24,649 bases of DNA. Origin: a virus. Below are positions 1 to 24,523 of the stretch, piece after piece (the stretch's first letter is position 1; every line of letters starts with the position of its first letter). Both the position numbers and the translations under genes were made by a program. The notes beneath the pieces were generated by a model. The model was not told where the DNA came from. It did not search any database and worked only from the letters and a program-made list of their open reading frames with translations. The stretch lies in IMG/VR virus record IMGVR_UViG_3300050121_000020, positions 1-24,649 of that record. One strand, 5' to 3'.

Positions 1-356
1 TGGGCCACCAACACGTAGGTAATTAACCCAACACACAAACTAAACAGACTGCCCATAATTAATGATGTCGCCCACGTTGGTCTGCCAAGAGCCACATTGT
101 CCAACTTATTAAATATTTTTTCAAATTTTGGATCTAAATTGTCCATCCGGCGATTTACTTCTGATTCAAAGCTGGACTGCTGATTCTTGATCATATTTAC
201 TTCCGTTCCCAGTACCGCTATCGTGGTCAGTACGGTTGCGTTTTCCTTTGCTAACACCAAGGCCGCAGCCGAAGCGGCCTCTGACACAGCCGAAGCCGTT
301 GCAGTTGCTGCCTGTGCTACTATTCGTGCTGTAATTTGTTCCTGAGTTTCATCCAA
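1..356 (-). CDS. XhlA-like phage membrane protein (lysis module), 3' end cut by window edge
   Basis: The visible part (about 118 residues) has an Ala-rich N-terminal helix, a polar coiled-coil-like stretch with KNQQSSFESEVNRRMDNL, and a C-terminal hydrophobic segment (ATSLIMGSLFSLCVGLITYV) that runs to the window edge. This coiled coil followed by one membrane helix is typical of XhlA/haemolysin-type proteins that sit beside the holin and endolysin in Bacillota phages, and the position downstream of the tail genes fits. The reading frame also has an ATG at 374, but the G-rich ribosome binding site (about 366-371) lies just after that ATG, so the TTG at 356 is the more likely start. The stop codon lies outside the window. 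The family call rests on architecture and context only. Confidence 0.6.
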   Translation of the reverse strand, partial: MDETQEQITARIVAQAATATASAVSEAASAAALVLAKENATVLTTIAVLGTEVNMIKNQQSSFESEVNRRMDNLDPKFEKIFNKLDNVALGRPTWATSLIMGSLFSLCVGLITYVLVA

Positions 357-385
357 TCTCAACCACCCCCTCATAAAGTAATTAA

Positions 386-401
386 ACCGCCCGGAGACGG
401 T
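386..401 (-). terminator. short hairpin between the 67-aa gene and the XhlA-like gene, possible leaky terminator
   Basis: Read on the minus strand, ACCGTC and GGCGGT form a 6-bp stem (one G-U pair) around a UCCG loop of the UNCG type, followed by TTTAATTACTTT. The U-tract is weak, so it may attenuate rather than stop transcription into the lysis module, or it may only stabilise an mRNA end. Confidence 0.3.
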
Positions 402-437
402 CTGATAACTAATGTTTTTGCTGCATATCATCAGTCT

Positions 438-641
438 TTATTTTTTCTTGCTAAGTGATATCCCGGCCCACCATCTTTGATTGGTACATTCAGCTTTAAG
501 CCATTTCACAACACCCATTTGGTGAACTTCTTTTTGAAGGTCCCTTACTTCTTTTCTTGGATGATCTGGAAATTCAAGAAGCATCGACAAAGAATCTATT
601 GCTCTTTCTTGAGTTCCAAAATAACAATCATAATTAGTCAT
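438..641 (-). CDS. small conserved-looking phage protein of unknown function (67 aa)
   Basis: The product starts MTNYDCYFGTQERAIDSL and contains VVKWLKAEC near residues 44-52. Short proteins with a YFGT.ERAI start and a WL.AEC element recur in Bacillota phages, often in the early region or near lysis genes; no function is known to me. An AGAGG ribosome binding site lies about 9 bases before the ATG. It is on the same strand as the late genes but downstream of the tail-operon terminator near 1350 and beyond the opposite-strand SLATT gene, so it needs its own promoter or readthrough. I could not find a convincing minus-strand promoter in the AT-rich gap at 642-783. Confidence 0.6.
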   Translation of the reverse strand: MTNYDCYFGTQERAIDSLSMLLEFPDHPRKEVRDLQKEVHQMGVVKWLKAECTNQRWWAGISLSKKK

Positions 642-697
642 GCTTCAATCCTCTTTCTGACACATCATGGGTCAAATGCGTAATAGGTAACTATATA

Positions 698-706
698 TGT
701 TATAAT
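698..706 (+). promoter_or_regulatory. extended -10 promoter for the SLATT-like gene
   Basis: TGTTATAAT is a perfect TGn-TATAAT extended -10 element in an AT-rich stretch. No good -35 box lies 16-18 bases upstream, which extended -10 promoters do not need. Transcription would start near 713, leaving a leader of about 70 bases before the TTG start at 784. The gene is on the opposite strand to the rest of the late genes, so it must have its own promoter. Confidence 0.55.
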
Positions 707-783
707 TTCCATATATTAAGGATAAATGATAATATTTTCTTAAATTTAAAAGGAATAAAGTAGCACACACAGGGGGAATTTAA

Positions 784-1248
784 TTGCCGTTAAAAACCGA
801 AGATAAATTAAAGAATCTAGTTCTGGAAATAAATTCAACTATGAAGTCATTAACTGAACAAACACTGAAAAGCGTTAAAATGAGGCGACGGATGGCGACA
901 ATACAGATAGTGTTAATGACTAGTACTACTATTTTACTTGGTTTGAAGTTGGGTCAAGTGGGACAATCTATAGCATTTGTTTTTAGTGCAATGGCAACGG
1001 GCCTATCTTCATGGTATAACATGGAGGTTAATAGAAAAAAACAAGTTGGAGTCATTAACTATTTGTATAAACTCGGAACTTTAGCATCTGAGGTACTCTT
1101 TTATACAATTAACTTTGATCCGCTAGAAGAAGAAAAGTTTTTAGAATATACAAAAATGTATTACGATCTTAGAAAAGAATTTGCAGAATCAATATCAATT
1201 CTATTGAATGGTAATTCTATAAAAGAGGATTCTAAATTGAATAATTGA
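784..1248 (+). CDS. SLATT-like two-TM membrane protein (cargo/moron gene)
   Basis: This 154-aa protein has a charged N-terminal helix (residues 1-38), two adjacent membrane segments (about 40-57, IQIVLMTSTTILLGLKLG, and about 62-80, SIAFVFSAMATGLSSWY), then an amphipathic, acidic C-terminal helical region. A basic RRR cluster precedes TM1. The layout matches SLATT domains (SMODS- and SLOG-associating two-TM effectors), which are thought to form pores or channels in defence systems; no partner nucleotidyltransferase or SLOG gene is visible here. The start is TTG behind a GGGGGAA ribosome binding site about 7 bases away. It is the only confident plus-strand gene, is clearly more AT-rich than its neighbours, and has its own promoter, so it is most likely lysogenic cargo such as superinfection exclusion or anti-phage defence. 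Function is inferred; a holin-like role is a possible alternative given the nearby lysis gene. Confidence 0.65.
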   Translation: MPLKTEDKLKNLVLEINSTMKSLTEQTLKSVKMRRRMATIQIVLMTSTTILLGLKLGQVGQSIAFVFSAMATGLSSWYNMEVNRKKQVGVINYLYKLGTLASEVLFYTINFDPLEEEKFLEYTKMYYDLRKEFAESISILLNGNSIKEDSKLNN

Positions 1249-1330
1249 AATCCATGGTCCCACACAAACATCGTATTATTCAGAAATGGATTTTACGGTG
1301 TTTTCACGTCACAATACAAAAGAAATTGTA

Positions 1331-1372
1331 AGGGCAAAGAAAAAACACCCTCTATGGTGTCTGCTTTGCCCT
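1331..1372 (-). terminator. rho-independent terminator of the late/tail operon, nested hairpin
   Basis: On the minus strand ACACC and GGTGT (1360-1345) form an inner stem with a 6-base loop, followed at once by a run of T (opposite the A-run at 1340-1345). This lies directly after the XkdX-like stop codon, where the tail operon should end. An outer pair, AGGGCAAAG (1331-1339) with CTTTGCCCT (1364-1372), encloses the whole element and gives a 9-bp second stem. In the plus direction no U-tract follows, so its effect on the convergent SLATT transcript is uncertain. Confidence 0.7.
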
Positions 1373-1378
1373 ATTGAA

Positions 1379-1528
1379 TTAAGCTACTATAGATAATGTT
1401 CCAGGAGTTTGTGAAGTGGCAAGGATTACCGCACATTGTTCAGAAGAAATAAATTTAGGTACTCTGTCCATAACCCATTGCTCAGTAACTCTCGCCATGA
1501 TCCATTGGTTTAAGATATAGCCATACAT
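1379..1528 (-). CDS. XkdX-like small tail-region protein (49 aa)
   Basis: The 49-aa product starts MYGYILNQWIMARVTEQWVM and ends in a short Thr/Pro-rich tail. The pattern (Tyr/Trp-rich start, a central V-P-K-F/Y-I element at about residues 23-27, then a Gln/Ile-Leu-Ala stretch) is that of XkdX-like proteins, found directly after tail-fibre genes in Bacillota siphoviruses and PBSX-like elements; their role is unknown. A near-perfect GGAGGTGAT ribosome binding site precedes the ATG. It is the last gene before the operon terminator. Confidence 0.75.
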   Translation of the reverse strand: MYGYILNQWIMARVTEQWVMDRVPKFISSEQCAVILATSQTPGTLSIVA

Positions 1529-1541
1529 AATATCACCTCCC

Positions 1542-1808
1542 TTACAACATAGTTAAGACCATATTTATTGCATCTTCCGCTGATGCTATTCTCTCCGTGT
1601 TAATTTCTTCAACCGTCTTCGGAATGTTTTCCAATGTAGCTACATTCGGCGTAACTGATACATCTACACCTATTCCATCTGTAATTTTAATTTGTTTTCC
1701 TGCTGGTATTTCTGCCCATATAAACGGTATTCCTTGAGGCTCTCTAACTGATCCGCTCATTAGGGAAATTATATAGCCCGTATTGTCATAAATTAATAGG
1801 GTATTCAT
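1542..1808 (-). CDS. tail-tip associated protein of unknown function (88 aa)
   Basis: The product starts MNTLLIYDNTGYIISLMSG and has the segment PQGIPFIWAEIPAGK at about residues 24-38, followed by a polar helix ending AEDAINMVLTML. Proteins with an IPFIW.EIP.GK core and a predicted C-terminal helix occur next to tail-fibre genes in many Clostridia and Negativicutes phages and are annotated as hypothetical. It lies 17 bases downstream of the fibre gene and 14 bases upstream of the XkdX-like gene, in one operon. An AGGAGG-like site (tcctcctt complement at about 1813-1820) supports the ATG. It may bind or help assemble the fibre; that is inference. Confidence 0.65.
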   Translation of the reverse strand: MNTLLIYDNTGYIISLMSGSVREPQGIPFIWAEIPAGKQIKITDGIGVDVSVTPNVATLENIPKTVEEINTERIASAEDAINMVLTML

Positions 1809-8851: not shown

Positions 8852-9751
8852 TTAAGCAACAGTTGTAAATGTTTCGTTGACCTGTACTAGGTGATTGCCT
8901 GCAAGGTCTGTTACAGCGCTATCTGCAATAGCCAGATACTTCGTTGAAGCGGCAAGCTGTGTTATTGGTGTAAGTGTAACTGTCTTGGTGGTATCATTGT
9001 AAACAACATTTGCAGGAACCATTGAACCATCCACTGTACTAACAAGATAGAAATTATTAGGAGTAACTACAGAAGGTAGTAGGCTTTCGCTAAATGTCCA
9101 AACAAACGTTGAGGCACGAGATACCGCTGCGGCATCAGTTACCGGGACTGTGGATATGATCGTCGGGGCTATAACATCTGCTGTTTGTTCAACCGAAGTA
9201 AACCAATTCGCACCGATCGATGAAACATAGTCTACTGAGTCTGTATCACTCTGCTTAGAAGCATTGCCATCAAAAATACGGTTATAAAATTCCCCTTTTA
9301 AAGTTTTGTACTTCGGGGTAACTTTTTCACCGAGACTTTCATGGTCTTTAGCAGGATCCTCAAATTTTCCCTTGAAATACCAATCATACTCATATGCCCC
9401 GTTATTTTTTTTACTCATATATCCCATTGCAATTTCTGGAGCAATATCAGCACTATTGCGTATCATGACGCCGGCAACAATTTGATGCCCCAGCATTTCT
9501 GCCTGTGCTTCAAGTGGGATGTTCTTCTGTTGAAATTCGATTGAGGTCGTACCAGTGAAATAAACCATTTCACTGACTGCATCATCAGATGATATTGGTG
9601 TCGAACTAACCTTAGGTGCTATTTTGGCGGTCATAGCACCTACCAGTGGTTTAACCGGACCATATACTACACCAGTAGCATCGTCTTTCGTAAGCAGTGC
9701 ATAGACAACATTTTTTAAGCCTACAACCGGGGCTGTCCCTGCATTTATCAT
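8852..9751 (-). CDS. major tail tube protein with C-terminal Ig-like domain
   Basis: The 299-aa protein has an N-terminal part (residues about 1-190) with the tail tube pattern of Bacillota siphoviruses: GLKNVVYALLTKD start, a central QQKNIPLEAQAEMLGHQ helix (about 74-90), and YEYDWYFKGKFEDPAKDHES. Residues about 193-299 (APTIISTVPVTDAAAVSRAS onward, with WTFSESLLP and TVTLTPITQLAASTKYLAIA and DLAGN) match a Big_5/SbsA-type Ig-like domain. Ig-like domains on tail tubes decorate the outside of the tail and are thought to bind cell-surface polysaccharide. The gene sits 4 bases after the tail completion gene. The fusion boundary is inferred from the pattern change. Confidence 0.85.
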   Translation of the reverse strand: MINAGTAPVVGLKNVVYALLTKDDATGVVYGPVKPLVGAMTAKIAPKVSSTPISSDDAVSEMVYFTGTTSIEFQQKNIPLEAQAEMLGHQIVAGVMIRNSADIAPEIAMGYMSKKNNGAYEYDWYFKGKFEDPAKDHESLGEKVTPKYKTLKGEFYNRIFDGNASKQSDTDSVDYVSSIGANWFTSVEQTADVIAPTIISTVPVTDAAAVSRASTFVWTFSESLLPSVVTPNNFYLVSTVDGSMVPANVVYNDTTKTVTLTPITQLAASTKYLAIADSAVTDLAGNHLVQVNETFTTVA

Positions 9752-15228: not shown

Positions 15229-16944
15229 TTAACCATTTACCAGGTTCATATATTCTGTCCTGTATTGCATGAGGACCGCGTAAGCAATGATCATGGTCAC
15301 CGCTCCGTCGATCCGGTTTATGGCTTCCCCTTGTACTTTGACTGGCATTATCAAGCCCATAGAATCAATTTTGAATGCCGTGTTGGACAAACACCATCTG
15401 TCGATTGGGTTGTTATTGTAGTTGATCAGATTGCCCCGCAGGTCGGCCTCTACTAACTTCATTGGGCTGGACATCACGTGCCGCTCCTGCGGGATACGTT
15501 CCATGTCGAAGCCCATATCGGACATATCCTTTACCCAGTATTTAGCCAGGGCATTATCGTAGCCGATCTTGTATGGCCGGATGCCTAACTGCTTAACCAC
15601 ATATATAAACCAATCAGTAATCAAACTAAAGTCATTGTCATTACCAGGCGATATTTGAAGCAATCCATCACGTGCCCATTGTAGATAATCCATATGATCA
15701 TCGCTTAGGTCTTGCTTTACTTCCGGGATGAAATACTGTTGTATCATATATTTGTGCGGGTCTCCCGGGCGCATGACCATCATCCTTGCCGATACCAGGT
15801 CAGTGGTTTCTGCCAGGTCAACGGCGCCGATTCCAACACAACCACGCAGAATTTCAGGGTCAAACGTTTCCACATTAGTGATTTCCGTATCACTCAACCA
15901 GGCTGTTGCATTGTTCTGCTTAATATTAAAATCTTTGGCCAGCACGAAAGCTCGAGTCGATTTATCTGTCTTTGCTTCTTCAACCAGGCGCCGCAGGAAT
16001 GACCACTTCTTGATCGTACCTAGGCCTGGATTACTCTTCACCCAGGACTTTTCATCCTGCCATATCTCGGCCTCATTATCCTGTGTATAAATCCATATCA
16101 ACCAGCGGGGCCGCTCAAGTTGGCCGTCTAGGACCTGCCGAGCCTCAATCAGTCGGTGGTCCAGGTAGCCGTCGTTCGTAAACCCTTCTGTGGTCAACTC
16201 GAAGTACAGCGGTTCGTCCTGCGTTGATAAGGCCTGGCGGATCGGCATGATTGAGGTATCATCCCTCAGTTCGTGGCATTCATCAAACGAACCTACGCCA
16301 ATGTTACGACCCTCTTTTGCACCTGTCTTTGATGATATCTTCCTGATATTGCCCTTGTTCTTGTAGGAGAACTTGCCGCTGTGCTTCGGTTTTTTGGGGT
16401 TGCCGAAGAATATTCCCTTAATATTCTTACGGGTTACCCTGCTGACAACTGGTGATTCCTCCCGCATTGCATCAATGGCCTGAAACATCAGATCCGCTTG
16501 CTCATAGTCATTGCTACTGCAAAGAATTTTAATTCCAAGTGGGCCACAAAAAAACTCCGCAAGGTCGATGGCCCCGACCAGTGGAGTCTTACCGGATTTT
16601 CTGGAGATCAGGAGAAGGATGTCCTGGTATTTTCTTACCCAGCGACCAACCTCATCATCATAAATCTTAAAGATGTAAATGGCTTCGATAAATGCTTTCT
16701 GAAACAGCATCAGAATAAAAGGTTTGCCGGCAAAAGGCGCTTCGTAGAACTTACACTGAGTTTCGATGAACTTGATGCGCTTGTGGGCCTCAGTGAAGTC
16801 AATTTTGATGTTGGGGTTATCAAATTCATCCAGATGTATGTCCAACTGCTGCATCAATTCGTTGCCAACTATTATCTCCCCAGATTTGCACTTGGAAATA
16901 TATTCAAGCAACCAGGAGTGAGTACCATTGTGTTCAGTAATCAT
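15229..16944 (-). CDS. terminase large subunit
   Basis: The 571-aa protein is the packaging motor. The ATPase has ILLISRKSGKTPLVGAIDLA with Walker A SRKSGKT (about 114-120), a Walker B strand VGSFDE (about 217-222), and a TTEG coupling motif (about 251-254). The nuclease domain begins near VGIGAVDLAETTDL with candidate metal-binding Asp376. A second acidic cluster follows in the RNase H-like fold. It overlaps the small terminase by four bases (ATGA), so the two are co-translated. With the HK97-type head genes it suggests a cos or headful packager of the Terminase_1 type; the cut site was not identified. Confidence 0.93.
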   Translation of the reverse strand: MITEHNGTHSWLLEYISKCKSGEIIVGNELMQQLDIHLDEFDNPNIKIDFTEAHKRIKFIETQCKFYEAPFAGKPFILMLFQKAFIEAIYIFKIYDDEVGRWVRKYQDILLLISRKSGKTPLVGAIDLAEFFCGPLGIKILCSSNDYEQADLMFQAIDAMREESPVVSRVTRKNIKGIFFGNPKKPKHSGKFSYKNKGNIRKISSKTGAKEGRNIGVGSFDECHELRDDTSIMPIRQALSTQDEPLYFELTTEGFTNDGYLDHRLIEARQVLDGQLERPRWLIWIYTQDNEAEIWQDEKSWVKSNPGLGTIKKWSFLRRLVEEAKTDKSTRAFVLAKDFNIKQNNATAWLSDTEITNVETFDPEILRGCVGIGAVDLAETTDLVSARMMVMRPGDPHKYMIQQYFIPEVKQDLSDDHMDYLQWARDGLLQISPGNDNDFSLITDWFIYVVKQLGIRPYKIGYDNALAKYWVKDMSDMGFDMERIPQERHVMSSPMKLVEADLRGNLINYNNNPIDRWCLSNTAFKIDSMGLIMPVKVQGEAINRIDGAVTMIIAYAVLMQYRTEYMNLVNG

Positions 16945-22255: not shown

Positions 22256-24523
22256 TCATCCCTCCAACACATCATCAATGGTCATCTGCTCATTAAGCCT
22301 TTTGGCTCCCTGTAGGTTCTTGGCCGCCGCCCGGAAGTAACTCTCTTTTAGTTCGATGCCGATAAATCGCCGACCTAATTTAATAGCCTCATAACCAGTC
22401 GAGCCAATGCCAGCAAAGGGATCTAACACTATATCATCCGGAGCCGACCATAGCATCACTGCCCGCTCAATCACCCCCAGTTGCAGGGGGCAAAGGTGAC
22501 GCTCGTCGTCGGCATCCCGGGCCTGCTTTACGTTGAGCACGTCAGTTTCCCGAATACCTCCCGGGTAGTCTTTCGTCTGTCTGTACCACACCGGAGCCGC
22601 CCATTCAATCCATTGCTCCTCAGTGATCCAACCGCCCATTGGGTTATATTTCTTTGATATCCCTGCATGAATCGGAACTGGGTTATCTCCAGGTTTCCGG
22701 AAGTAAATTAGGTAATCGGCCAGTGCCATCCGCATCATCGAAGAATCAGTGGCAAGGGACTTGAATAGTAGGCCTCGCTCCTTATTCCTGACGGCCTGGA
22801 CCTGAGGATTCTTGTCGATGGTCACTTCACCGGCGTAAATCCAGCCGGCCTCATTCATAACCTCGATCACTCTGCCCCGGTAGTCGTGGAGTCCAATATA
22901 TCCTTCCCTGGACTTCATGGCCGTCAGCTGGCACAGATGGATGCAGCAGAGGCGCCCGGGCATTATTACCCGCATGAGTTTATCCTTAGTCACTAGGTAT
23001 TTAAAGTGCTCAACCATCTGGTCTATCGTGGTTGTGTTTCCTATGTCATGAGGTGAGTTTGTATAGGCATACATCCCCGGAAAAGGCGGTGAAAATATCG
23101 TCAGGCCGCAGGAGTTATCCGGAACCTGATCAATCATTTCCACGCTGTCCCCCATGTAGAGCTGCCAGCCCTTCCCCTTCTCCTGATCCACTGTATAAAT
23201 CATCTCCTCTCTGTTCGACGGTCCGTAAAGCTGCAGGCCGTCCATGTTTTTCACAATCTCGTCGAACATCTCCTGAGCCTGCAGTTCTTTCCGTTGGATG
23301 TTCTCTTTGACCTTTCCTTCGGTTTCGGCAATCACTATATGGACGTTGACCCGATTCTGCTGCCCAAACCTCCAGCACCGGCGTACTGCCTGATAGAACT
23401 GCTCATAACTATCGGACAACCCGACAAATACGACGTTGCTACAGTGCTGCCAGTTCATTCCGAAACCTGCGATACTCGGTTTGGTGATCATAATCCGGTT
23501 CGCTCCGGAGGAAAATCCCTGCAGGGCCTTTTCCTTATACTCCGGAGTATCGCTCCCCTTCACTTCGATGGAGCCAGGGATCGCCTTCCGTAGGGCTTCG
23601 CTCTCACGGTTCAGGTCACACCATATCAGCCAGTTTTCATCCGGTTTCTCAGCAACAATCCGAGCGGCCTCAGTCACTCGCAGGCTGGTCGATCCCTTCC
23701 GGGCTTCCCGGCGCTCTTCTAAGGTCTCCGCTTCGACCGCAAAGAGCCGGCCAATAGGCTTCCCCACCTCGACGGTATGCTGTATCAGGTTGAGCGGTGG
23801 CAGGATAAAACCATCATCGTCGTACCCAATGTCAGATGGCTTCCGAATTGCCACGCACCAGGTAGCCACCCACTTCCAAAATGCTTTCTTTGCGTGCCCC
23901 TTGAGGCGCCAGTGGTGAGTCGTATTCCCATCCTGCGTGAAGTACAGGGCGATAATTTCTTTCCCGCTCATCACCCCGAGGAATTCAGCGTGATTGGTAA
24001 TCTCTATCAGGTCGTTGGGTGCCGGGGTCGCTGTGCATGCCAGTCGGTACTCAATCTGACTGCCAAACTTCGTGATCTCTTGTCTATATTTACCGGAGAA
24101 TGCTTTCAGGATGCTGGACTCATCCAGCACTATTCCCTGAAAAGCTTTCGGGTCGAAGTGGTGTAGCATCTCATAGTTTGTGATATTAATCCCCGGTTTC
24201 ACGTTCGCCTGAGTCCGGCAAATCGTGATAGAGATCCCCAACTTCCCAGCTTCGGTCCTGGTCTGAGTAGCAACGGCCAGGGGAGCCAGGATTAGGACAC
24301 TGCCACCAGTGTAATTACAGACCAGCCGGGCCCACTCCAGCTGTTGGAACGTTTTTCCAAGCCCGCAATCCTCGAAGAGAGCAGCCCGGCCTCTGCGAAG
24401 AGCCCAGCCGACAATAATTTGCTGGAATGGATAGAGGATTTGATTGATCTCGTTTATGTCAGAGTTGATTCCGTGGAAGTCGTTTTTCGGACGCTTCGAC
24501 TGAAGGAAATCCTGATATGTCAT
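22256..24523 (-). CDS. SNF2-type helicase fused to DNA methyltransferase
   Basis: The 755-aa protein has two enzymes. Residues about 25-425 are an SF2/SNF2-type ATPase: Walker A GLGKT (54-58), a DEAH-like box LDESS (133-137), TATPAPN (164-170), and motif VI QAVRRCWRFGQQNR (378-391). Residues about 450-740 are an amino-methyltransferase of the beta class: SPPF (478-481) comes first, then a long target-recognition region, and the SAM-binding DPFAGIGST (701-709) near the end. SPPF leaves N4-cytosine or N6-adenine both possible. Such fusions occur in Bacillota prophages; roles may include DNA modification against host restriction or remodelling during replication. No restriction endonuclease gene is visible. 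It overlaps the 3D-domain gene by 4 bases. Confidence 0.9.
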   Translation of the reverse strand: MTYQDFLQSKRPKNDFHGINSDINEINQILYPFQQIIVGWALRRGRAALFEDCGLGKTFQQLEWARLVCNYTGGSVLILAPLAVATQTRTEAGKLGISITICRTQANVKPGINITNYEMLHHFDPKAFQGIVLDESSILKAFSGKYRQEITKFGSQIEYRLACTATPAPNDLIEITNHAEFLGVMSGKEIIALYFTQDGNTTHHWRLKGHAKKAFWKWVATWCVAIRKPSDIGYDDDGFILPPLNLIQHTVEVGKPIGRLFAVEAETLEERREARKGSTSLRVTEAARIVAEKPDENWLIWCDLNRESEALRKAIPGSIEVKGSDTPEYKEKALQGFSSGANRIMITKPSIAGFGMNWQHCSNVVFVGLSDSYEQFYQAVRRCWRFGQQNRVNVHIVIAETEGKVKENIQRKELQAQEMFDEIVKNMDGLQLYGPSNREEMIYTVDQEKGKGWQLYMGDSVEMIDQVPDNSCGLTIFSPPFPGMYAYTNSPHDIGNTTTIDQMVEHFKYLVTKDKLMRVIMPGRLCCIHLCQLTAMKSREGYIGLHDYRGRVIEVMNEAGWIYAGEVTIDKNPQVQAVRNKERGLLFKSLATDSSMMRMALADYLIYFRKPGDNPVPIHAGISKKYNPMGGWITEEQWIEWAAPVWYRQTKDYPGGIRETDVLNVKQARDADDERHLCPLQLGVIERAVMLWSAPDDIVLDPFAGIGSTGYEAIKLGRRFIGIELKESYFRAAAKNLQGAKRLNEQMTIDDVLEG

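What the first reader, a model, noticed from the sequence alone, without database searches (positions are those of the whole stretch)
660..1250. Opposite-strand SLATT-like membrane gene as phage cargo
A two-TM protein with SLATT-like layout is the only confident gene on the plus strand. It is AT-rich, has a perfect extended -10 (TGTTATAAT) and lies between the tail-operon terminator and the lysis module. SLATT proteins are known as membrane effectors in bacterial defence systems, usually with a SMODS or SLOG partner. Here it stands alone in what looks like a prophage, which suggests superinfection exclusion or stand-alone anti-phage defence. It could be a previously undescribed prophage defence gene.
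Basis: partly seen in the sequence, partly recalled or inferred. Interest (0 to 1): 0.7.

Follow-up and report, generated by a model that had tools for sequence, protein, structure and literature searches.

The report
Stand-alone phage SLATT membrane gene
A small membrane protein, carried as a self-contained extra gene by a bacterial virus, is a distant relative of the SLATT proteins that bacteria pair with alarm-signal enzymes in anti-virus defence, but no such enzyme was found beside it, which makes it a good test of whether SLATT proteins can act alone.

Summary
ORF 784-1248 (+, 154 aa, TTG start) is an accessory gene on the opposite strand between tail and lysis genes of an IMG/VR virus record, with its own extended -10, ribosome-binding site and terminator hairpin. 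SLATT similarity is real but remote: no family member reaches a curated cut-off, and single-profile E-values near 1e-6 also hit unrelated proteins. The stronger evidence is profile-profile comparison with two accepted SLATT families, which gave values as good as between those families, with clean controls, and a bridging protein. Three homologues (35-46% identical) come from other viral contigs; all four share the promoter motif and a 3' hairpin. Phage-borne SLATT is already published, paired with TIR. No TIR or SMODS gene was found in the four records, so a partner-less phage sub-family is the new part. Most likely it is a lysogen-expressed membrane effector acting against competing phages; that function is inferred, not shown. 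Holin and late-gene readings are disfavoured. The most novel reading not excluded: a self-sufficient effector, or a decoy that poisons a host SLATT effector.

The parts
784..1248 (+). SLATT-superfamily membrane protein gene, 154 aa, TTG start
   Evidence: ORF; remote SLATT profile matches and homologues
874..1020 (+). Helices 31-53 and 57-79, the hydrophobic hairpin
   Evidence: AlphaFold model, mean pLDDT 66; hydropathy peaks
698..706 (+). Extended -10 promoter motif TGTTATAAT; no good -35 by eye
   Evidence: same motif before the gene in 4 of 4 family members
771..776 (+). Ribosome-binding site AGGGGG
   Evidence: sequence
1266..1303 (+). Terminator-type hairpin directly after the gene, clostridial type
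   Evidence: -15.8 kcal/mol and 85% identity over 39 nt to L003 5092-5129
1343..1362 (-). Terminator-like site that closes the tail block
438..641 (-). 67-aa gene of unknown function beside the SLATT gene, shared with other phages
3..431 (-). Lysis-position gene (runs off the window), flank of the insertion
   Evidence: tblastn to L017, 30%, E 7e-9; layout
1379..1808 (-). Last small ORFs of the tail block (1379-1528, 1542-1808), flank of the insertion

Best explanation
A moron-type cargo gene encoding a divergent SLATT-superfamily membrane protein without a co-encoded signal enzyme. Shown by sequence and prediction: a helical protein with a hydrophobic hairpin in the middle, remote SLATT homology, an autonomous promoter-gene-terminator unit, and relatives in three other viral contigs at different places. 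Inferred: it is made in the lysogen while late genes are silent, oligomerises in the inner membrane with its N- and C-terminal helices in the cytoplasm, stays closed, and opens or otherwise disturbs the membrane when a second phage infects, so that the infected cell stops supporting that phage. What triggers it is unknown: direct sensing by its cytoplasmic helices, or a nucleotide signal made by an enzyme of the host.
For: SLATT relation: a SLATT model is the best NCBIfam hit of all 4 members; hhalign of three members to SLATT_4 and DUF4231 sets gives 77% and 74%, against 63% between those two sets, with reversed, shuffled and lysis-protein controls at 1% or less; 84.5% and 92.1% with four members; bridge protein L109. 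Autonomous unit: promoter motif in 4 of 4 and a hairpin after the stop in 4 of 4, that of L003 with a different loop. Cargo: AT-rich, no gene at this junction in relative L017, different places in the four contigs. The closest SLATT reference by single-sequence score is one paired with TIR beside the integrase of a 43-kb staphylococcal phage-like record. SLATT is required for DRT10 defence (PMC12632851, passages) and predicted as a membrane effector in other systems (PMC9503650, PMC7159879, passages).
Against: No curated SLATT cut-off is reached by any member. In a search of 398 genomes with NCBIfam SLATT_1 the C. puniceum member (E 7.8e-6) ranked below a hit in an ABC-transporter-like ORF (L026, E 6.8e-7), so single-profile E-values of this size are not decisive. 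In the single-sequence hhalign test 10 of 15 SLATT references did not stand above all other ORFs. No PADLOC model matches. The hydrophobic segments are weaker than in most references. Foldseek matches to annotated SLATT models have E 0.016 or worse. Nothing here measures expression, membrane insertion or defence.
Confidence: 0.5

Rival explanations
1. Superinfection exclusion at entry: a two-helix membrane protein that blocks DNA injection by related phages without harming the cell, using the SLATT fold only as a membrane scaffold.
For: Autonomous promoter and terminator; position near the integrase in L002 and L003, where exclusion genes of Gram-positive temperate phages usually sit (recalled).
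Against: SLATT relatives are described as parts of intracellular systems (PMC12632851, PMC7159879 passages). The predicted cytoplasmic helices make up most of the protein, which suits sensing more than blocking a channel.
Confidence: 0.2
2. Counter-defence decoy: the phage SLATT joins the oligomer of a host SLATT effector (CBASS-like, DRT10 or TIR-SLATT) and keeps it from opening, protecting the phage.
For: SLATT without a found enzyme that would activate it; weaker hydrophobic segments than in most references.
Against: No decoy SLATT is known to me. The similarity to known effectors is very remote, so co-assembly would have to tolerate great divergence. The lysogeny-type promoter fits defence of the lysogen at least as well.
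Confidence: 0.12
3. Effector that borrows a host signal: it binds a nucleotide made by a chromosomal SMODS, TIR or similar enzyme of the host. This overlaps with the best explanation and differs only in the trigger.
For: Partner not found in the four records, although SLATT is predicted to respond to nucleotide signals (PMC7159879, PMC9503650 passages).
Against: The host of the window phage is not known, so no enzyme could be looked for; the records may be fragments.
Confidence: 0.12
4. Lysis gene: a holin, anti-holin or lysis regulator on the opposite strand.
For: Two hydrophobic segments and a place near the lysis-position gene 3-431 (-). In L002 a weak, below-cut-off holin-family match lies about 4 kb from the SLATT gene.
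Against: The late genes run on the other strand and a terminator-like site lies before it. No holin family is listed for it, and hhalign to the neighbouring lysis-position protein pair is near 0. No lysis gene was seen next to the homologues in L002, L003 and L074 (by eye and partial Pfam scans).
Confidence: 0.06

Closest known systems
TIR-SLATT pair of firmicute phages (PMC9503650); SLATT = phrog_7395, TIR = phrog_6988 by my scan
   Same: Phage-borne 145-aa SLATT between repressor-type genes and the integrase in a 43-kb staphylococcal phage-like record. It is the best single-sequence SLATT reference for our family, and phrog_7395 is the best PHROG of L002 and L003, at E 0.0034 and 0.0035 only.
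   Different: No TIR match in 4 of 4 records. The window protein itself hits no PHROG.
SMODS-SLATT systems (SLATT_4)
   Same: Similar helix layout; hhalign 77-84.5%. A nucleotidyltransferase lies beside SLATT in 5 of 5 annotated SLATT_4 plasmid regions fetched.
   Different: No SMODS match in 4 of 4 records. Of the two unannotated phage records fetched, L062 has a nucleotidyltransferase-like ORF beside SLATT by eye, L063 has none in the stretch shown, so a SLATT without SMODS beside it is not unique to our family.
DRT10 (UG17 reverse transcriptase, ncRNA, SLATT; PMC12632851)
   Same: A SLATT protein needed for phage defence (passages read).
   Different: No reverse transcriptase among the 30 ORFs scanned with Pfam; the upstream region 690-790 folds no better than its shuffles (z 0.31).
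   Same: Found with our family profile at E 2.6e-6; matches our family at 73% and the DUF4231 set at 95.9%; no signal enzyme in its 3.4-kb stretch by eye.
   Different: Not seen in a phage context; 188 aa. It shows that SLATT genes standing alone also occur outside our family.
Phage morons / superinfection-exclusion genes
   Same: Own promoter and terminator, foreign composition, absent from a relative.
   Different: Expression and function not measured.

Membership tests
SLATT superfamily | Profile similarity to established SLATT families above controls | tested here: met
   hhalign 77% and 74% with 3 members, 84.5% and 92.1% with 4. Controls: reversed, 5 column shuffles and a lysis-protein pair at 1% or less; 60 block shuffles with maximum scores 18.6 and 28.5 against 45.9 and 41.0. 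Bridge L109. Weaker test: single-sequence ranking, 5 of 15 references above all non-family ORFs.
Named families Pfam SLATT_1, SLATT_4, DUF4231; NCBIfam SLATT_1, SLATT_4 | Curated bit-score cut-off | tested here: not met
   Pfam SLATT_1: 14 bits for the window, 16.4-22.3 for the others, cut-off 26.3. NCBIfam SLATT_1: 18.4-31.5, cut-off 41; SLATT_4 best 33.9, cut-off 55. So it is not filed in any named family.
SLATT superfamily | Two transmembrane helices flanked by cytoplasmic helices | tested here: inconclusive
   AlphaFold gives the helix order (mean pLDDT 66 window first, 82 L002 first) and there are two hydrophobic peaks, but weaker than in most of 15 references. No topology was measured.
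SLATT superfamily | Membrane pore activity | not testable with these tools
   Needs an experiment; predicted in the passages read.
TIR-SLATT phage system | TIR gene beside SLATT | tested here: not met
   phrog_6988 and PF13676: 0 of 4 records at E <= 1; the records may be fragments.
SMODS-SLATT (CBASS-like) | SMODS nucleotidyltransferase beside SLATT | tested here: not met
   PF18144: 0 of 4 records at E <= 1; the records may be fragments.
DRT9/DRT10 | Reverse transcriptase and ncRNA | tested here: inconclusive
   No reverse transcriptase among 30 ORFs scanned (10 each of window, L003, L002); whole records were not scanned. Rfam at gathering cut-offs: 0 families in the window.
Phage moron | Own promoter and terminator, inserted between phage operons, absent from relatives | tested here: met
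   the comparison with relatives rests on one informative locus, L017, of three fetched.
Phage moron | Expressed in the lysogen | not testable with these tools
   No RNA data held.
Holin / lysis protein | Holin-family match and late-operon position | tested here: not met
   No holin family listed; opposite strand to the late genes.

The most novel reading that the evidence does not exclude
The four genes define a SLATT sub-family that temperate phages carry without a signal enzyme, either as a self-sufficient one-gene abortive-infection effector or as a decoy that enters and silences the SLATT pore of host defence systems. Either would show that the SLATT module can work, or be subverted, without its nucleotide-making enzyme.
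Probability: 0.3. Interest if true: 0.72.

Novelty: new variant of a known kind. Interest (0 to 1): 0.47.

Why it matters
SLATT proteins recur in several bacterial conflict systems, yet in the passages I read their trigger and their action in the membrane are still predictions. A natural one-gene version, with its own promoter and terminator and no enzyme found beside it, is a simple object on which to test whether a SLATT protein protects cells alone, needs a host signal, or interferes with other SLATT systems.

Tried and rejected
Searches that found nothing or little: tblastn of the window protein and of the L003 protein in the phage and plasmid collections; PADLOC; the first genome scan. 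Genome searches with the family profile: 1 of 68 Clostridium genomes and 1 of 391 class-level genomes, in both cases the C. puniceum genome itself, and 2 of 206 family-level genomes, the second being the remote bridge L109. The family looks rare.

SLATT models run over genomes gave few and partly doubtful matches: Pfam SLATT_1 2 of 147 genomes, none over the cut-off; SLATT_4 3 of 147, two over it; NCBIfam SLATT_1 28 of 398, two over it, with long unrelated-looking ORFs among the weaker ones. I therefore leaned on profile-profile comparison.

Structure: the window-first model is poor (pLDDT 66); its viral Foldseek list holds 4 annotated SLATT proteins among 50 rows at E 0.69 or worse, and its solved-structure list is uninformative. 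The L002-first model (pLDDT 82) has 7 annotated SLATT proteins among the 50 viral rows shown, best E 0.016; no match of any kind reached E 0.001. The solved-structure second look shows helical proteins such as BAR domains and designed bundles, Z 10.8 at best, within the range the tool warns of for helical models. A sequence search of solved structures gave no match better than E 0.39.

Cargo-cassette idea: I first took the shared 3' hairpin for a marker of phage cargo cassettes, since it lies 17-142 nt after a same-strand ORF in 12 of 15 viral stretches (of the other three, L066 has no such ORF and L068 and L070 are cut off). A scan of 67 Clostridium genomes found 27 copies in 14 genomes against 0 for the reversed pattern, mostly after ordinary chromosomal genes by eye. 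It is therefore a widespread clostridial terminator type, and the claim was dropped to that.

67-aa neighbour as obligate partner: rejected. It occurs in L009-L013, where no SLATT ORF was seen in the fetched stretches (by eye; ORFs of L009, L011 and L012 also went through the hhalign ranking, L010 and L013 did not), and it gave no match in the stretch fetched around the L002 gene.

Literature: searches for SLATT with prophage, superinfection exclusion, TIR and SMODS, for 'SLATT domain' and for DUF4231 listed no paper on a stand-alone phage SLATT that I recognised; I saw listings and passages only, and the library lacks most subscription papers.

Full report
What is there. The window is an IMG/VR virus record of 24,649 bases. 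Its phage genes run on the minus strand: a terminase-like gene (15229-16944, tblastn matches in 2127 phage records), then portal-, capsid- and tail-like genes by eye and in part by PHROG, then small tail-end ORFs (1542-1808, 1379-1528), then a lysis-position gene at 3-431. ORF 784-1248 lies between them on the plus strand. It has an extended -10 at 698-706, AGGGGG at 771-776, a TTG start at 784, and a hairpin at 1266-1303 (-15.8 kcal/mol) after the stop. On the minus strand a terminator-like site at 1362-1343 closes the tail block. The gene has 31.4% G+C against 46.1% for the window, and the two 500-base blocks around it are the lowest of those tabulated. So it has the anatomy of an autonomous transcription unit of foreign composition.

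Is it an insertion? Three viral contigs with the neighbouring tail protein were fetched. In L017 a 78-aa ORF ends at 9067 and the homologue of the lysis-position gene (30%, E 7e-9) starts at 9138, leaving no room for a gene. L015 has a similar layout, but its ORF at that place gave no tblastn hit. L016 ends before the junction. One informative relative of three therefore supports an insertion, which would include the 67-aa gene.

Homologues. The viral scans gave L002 and L003 (37% and 39% identical overall; 40% and 44% in the best segment). L003 has the same length and match as L006, a contig of Clostridium puniceum DSM 2619. A fourth, L074 (46%), was found by DNA alone: it is the gene directly before a copy of the shared hairpin. 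The four share blocks such as TTILLGLKL and SIA. L002 and L003 are 60% identical to each other. All four have TGNTATAAT ending 33-77 nt before the start and a hairpin soon after the stop; in L003 the hairpin has a different loop. They lie in different places: the tail-lysis junction (window), near an integrase (L002, one ORF between; L003, directly before it), and between a 150-aa and a 50-aa ORF (L074).

Is it SLATT? By single profiles the window protein is marginal (Pfam SLATT_1 E 0.051; NCBIfam SLATT_1 E 0.0017). The others are clearer: NCBIfam SLATT_1 E 1.6e-6 (L003), 3.4e-7 (L002), 1.4e-7 (L074), and SLATT_4 E 2.6e-8 (L074). None reaches a curated cut-off, and in a genome-wide search with the same NCBIfam model an ABC-transporter-like ORF scored E 6.8e-7, better than the C. 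puniceum member at 7.8e-6. Single profiles are thus not decisive. hhalign of the three-member family gave 74% (E 3.3e-6) and 77% (E 2.4e-6); the two reference sets against each other gave 63% (E 9.5e-6); reversed, shuffled and lysis-protein controls gave 1% or less. With four members the values were 92.1% and 84.5%, and 60 block-preserving shuffles stayed below in score. Against 187 ORFs of eight sources (three of them the family itself), the five best non-family matches were SLATT proteins, while the other 10 of 15 references mixed with unrelated ORFs. A protein from a genome of the same family as C. puniceum, found with the family profile (L109, E 2.6e-6), matches the DUF4231 set at 95.9% and our family at 73%. 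I conclude it belongs to the SLATT superfamily, outside the named families.

Partners. No TIR (phrog_6988, PF13676) or SMODS (PF18144) match at E <= 1 in the four held records; control genomes rang in each search. Pfam scans of 10 window ORFs, 10 of L003 and 10 of L002 showed no nucleotide-signal enzyme or reverse transcriptase. The window ORFs not scanned were taken as structural from position. The records may be fragments. Stand-alone SLATT is not unique to this family: L109 and the phage record L063 show no signal enzyme in their fetched stretches by eye.

What is known. The reading of SLATT as a nucleotide-responsive pore is stated in passages I read (PMC7159879; PMC9503650). PMC9503650 says that firmicute phages carry TIR typically next to SLATT, sometimes with an HTH gene or a zincin-like peptidase; I saw that layout in a 43-kb staphylococcal phage-like record. 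DRT10 needs its SLATT gene for defence (PMC12632851 passages). DRT9 occasionally carries one (PMC12483538 passages). An RT-SLATT pair sits in a P4-like satellite (PMC9122126 passage). A DUF4231 gene is noted near a phage anti-CRISPR (PMC10799925 passage). SLATT as phage or satellite cargo is thus known; a partner-less phage form did not appear in my searches.

How it most likely works. Shown: gene, remote homology, transcription signals, cargo layout. Inferred: expression in the lysogen, membrane insertion with both ends inside, oligomer formation, activation during infection by another phage, membrane damage. The trigger is open. I give 0.5 to this reading, 0.2 to exclusion at entry, 0.12 each to a decoy and to a borrowed host signal (the latter overlaps with the first), and 0.06 to a lysis role.

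Against my reading. Cut-offs are missed; hydrophobic peaks are 1.15-1.85 in three family members against mostly 1.6-2.4 in the references, though two references have a peak below 1.3; the best structural matches to annotated SLATT models are weak; the promoter's -35 is poor by eye, and about one such -10 is expected by chance in a window of this size.

Noticed in passing
Viral: L067, L069, L071-L076, L079, L080, L002, L003; Clostridium genomes: L088, L095, L100, L101, L103, L104: Many clostridial genes that end in the hairpin AATACCGTATTATTCAGAAATGAATTT also begin with a box close to TCTTTGAAAAYTGAATAATACGGTATT, whose second half is complementary to the hairpin's first half by 6 to 17 bases. 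With up to 2 mismatches the 15-base box was found within 2.2 kb upstream in 10 of 15 viral stretches (4 of the other 5 have under 350 bases upstream; L078 lacks it) and in 6 of 27 genome loci, against 8 of 720 mononucleotide-shuffled 1.5-kb stretches. The first half looks like a boxA antitermination site (recalled); the pairing would compete with the terminator. No Rfam match lies at it in the five loci scanned, and one literature string search found nothing. The box is not recognisable in the window.
   Followed up: partly
window 438-641 (-): A 67-aa gene of unknown function, 76-79% identical in DNA to genes in L003 and L009-L013, beside the SLATT gene in the window and 0.4 kb before it in L003.
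   Followed up: partly
L003:3165-5078: A 247-aa protein of unknown function followed by an HTH-IrrE (zincin) protein, beginning near the 5' box and ending in the shared hairpin; it looks like a second cargo unit in the Clostridium puniceum phage.
   Followed up: no
window 22256-24523 (-): A 755-aa fusion of a SNF2-type helicase and an N6/N4 DNA methylase (Pfam) within a phage.
   Followed up: no
L080:11904-12791, L072:5944-6660, L069:12522-13121, L079:6087-7004: Single uncharacterised genes between the 5' box and the hairpin in viral contigs, two of them (L069, L072) with membrane-like segments by eye; no Pfam match over a cut-off. Candidate cargo or defence genes.
   Followed up: no
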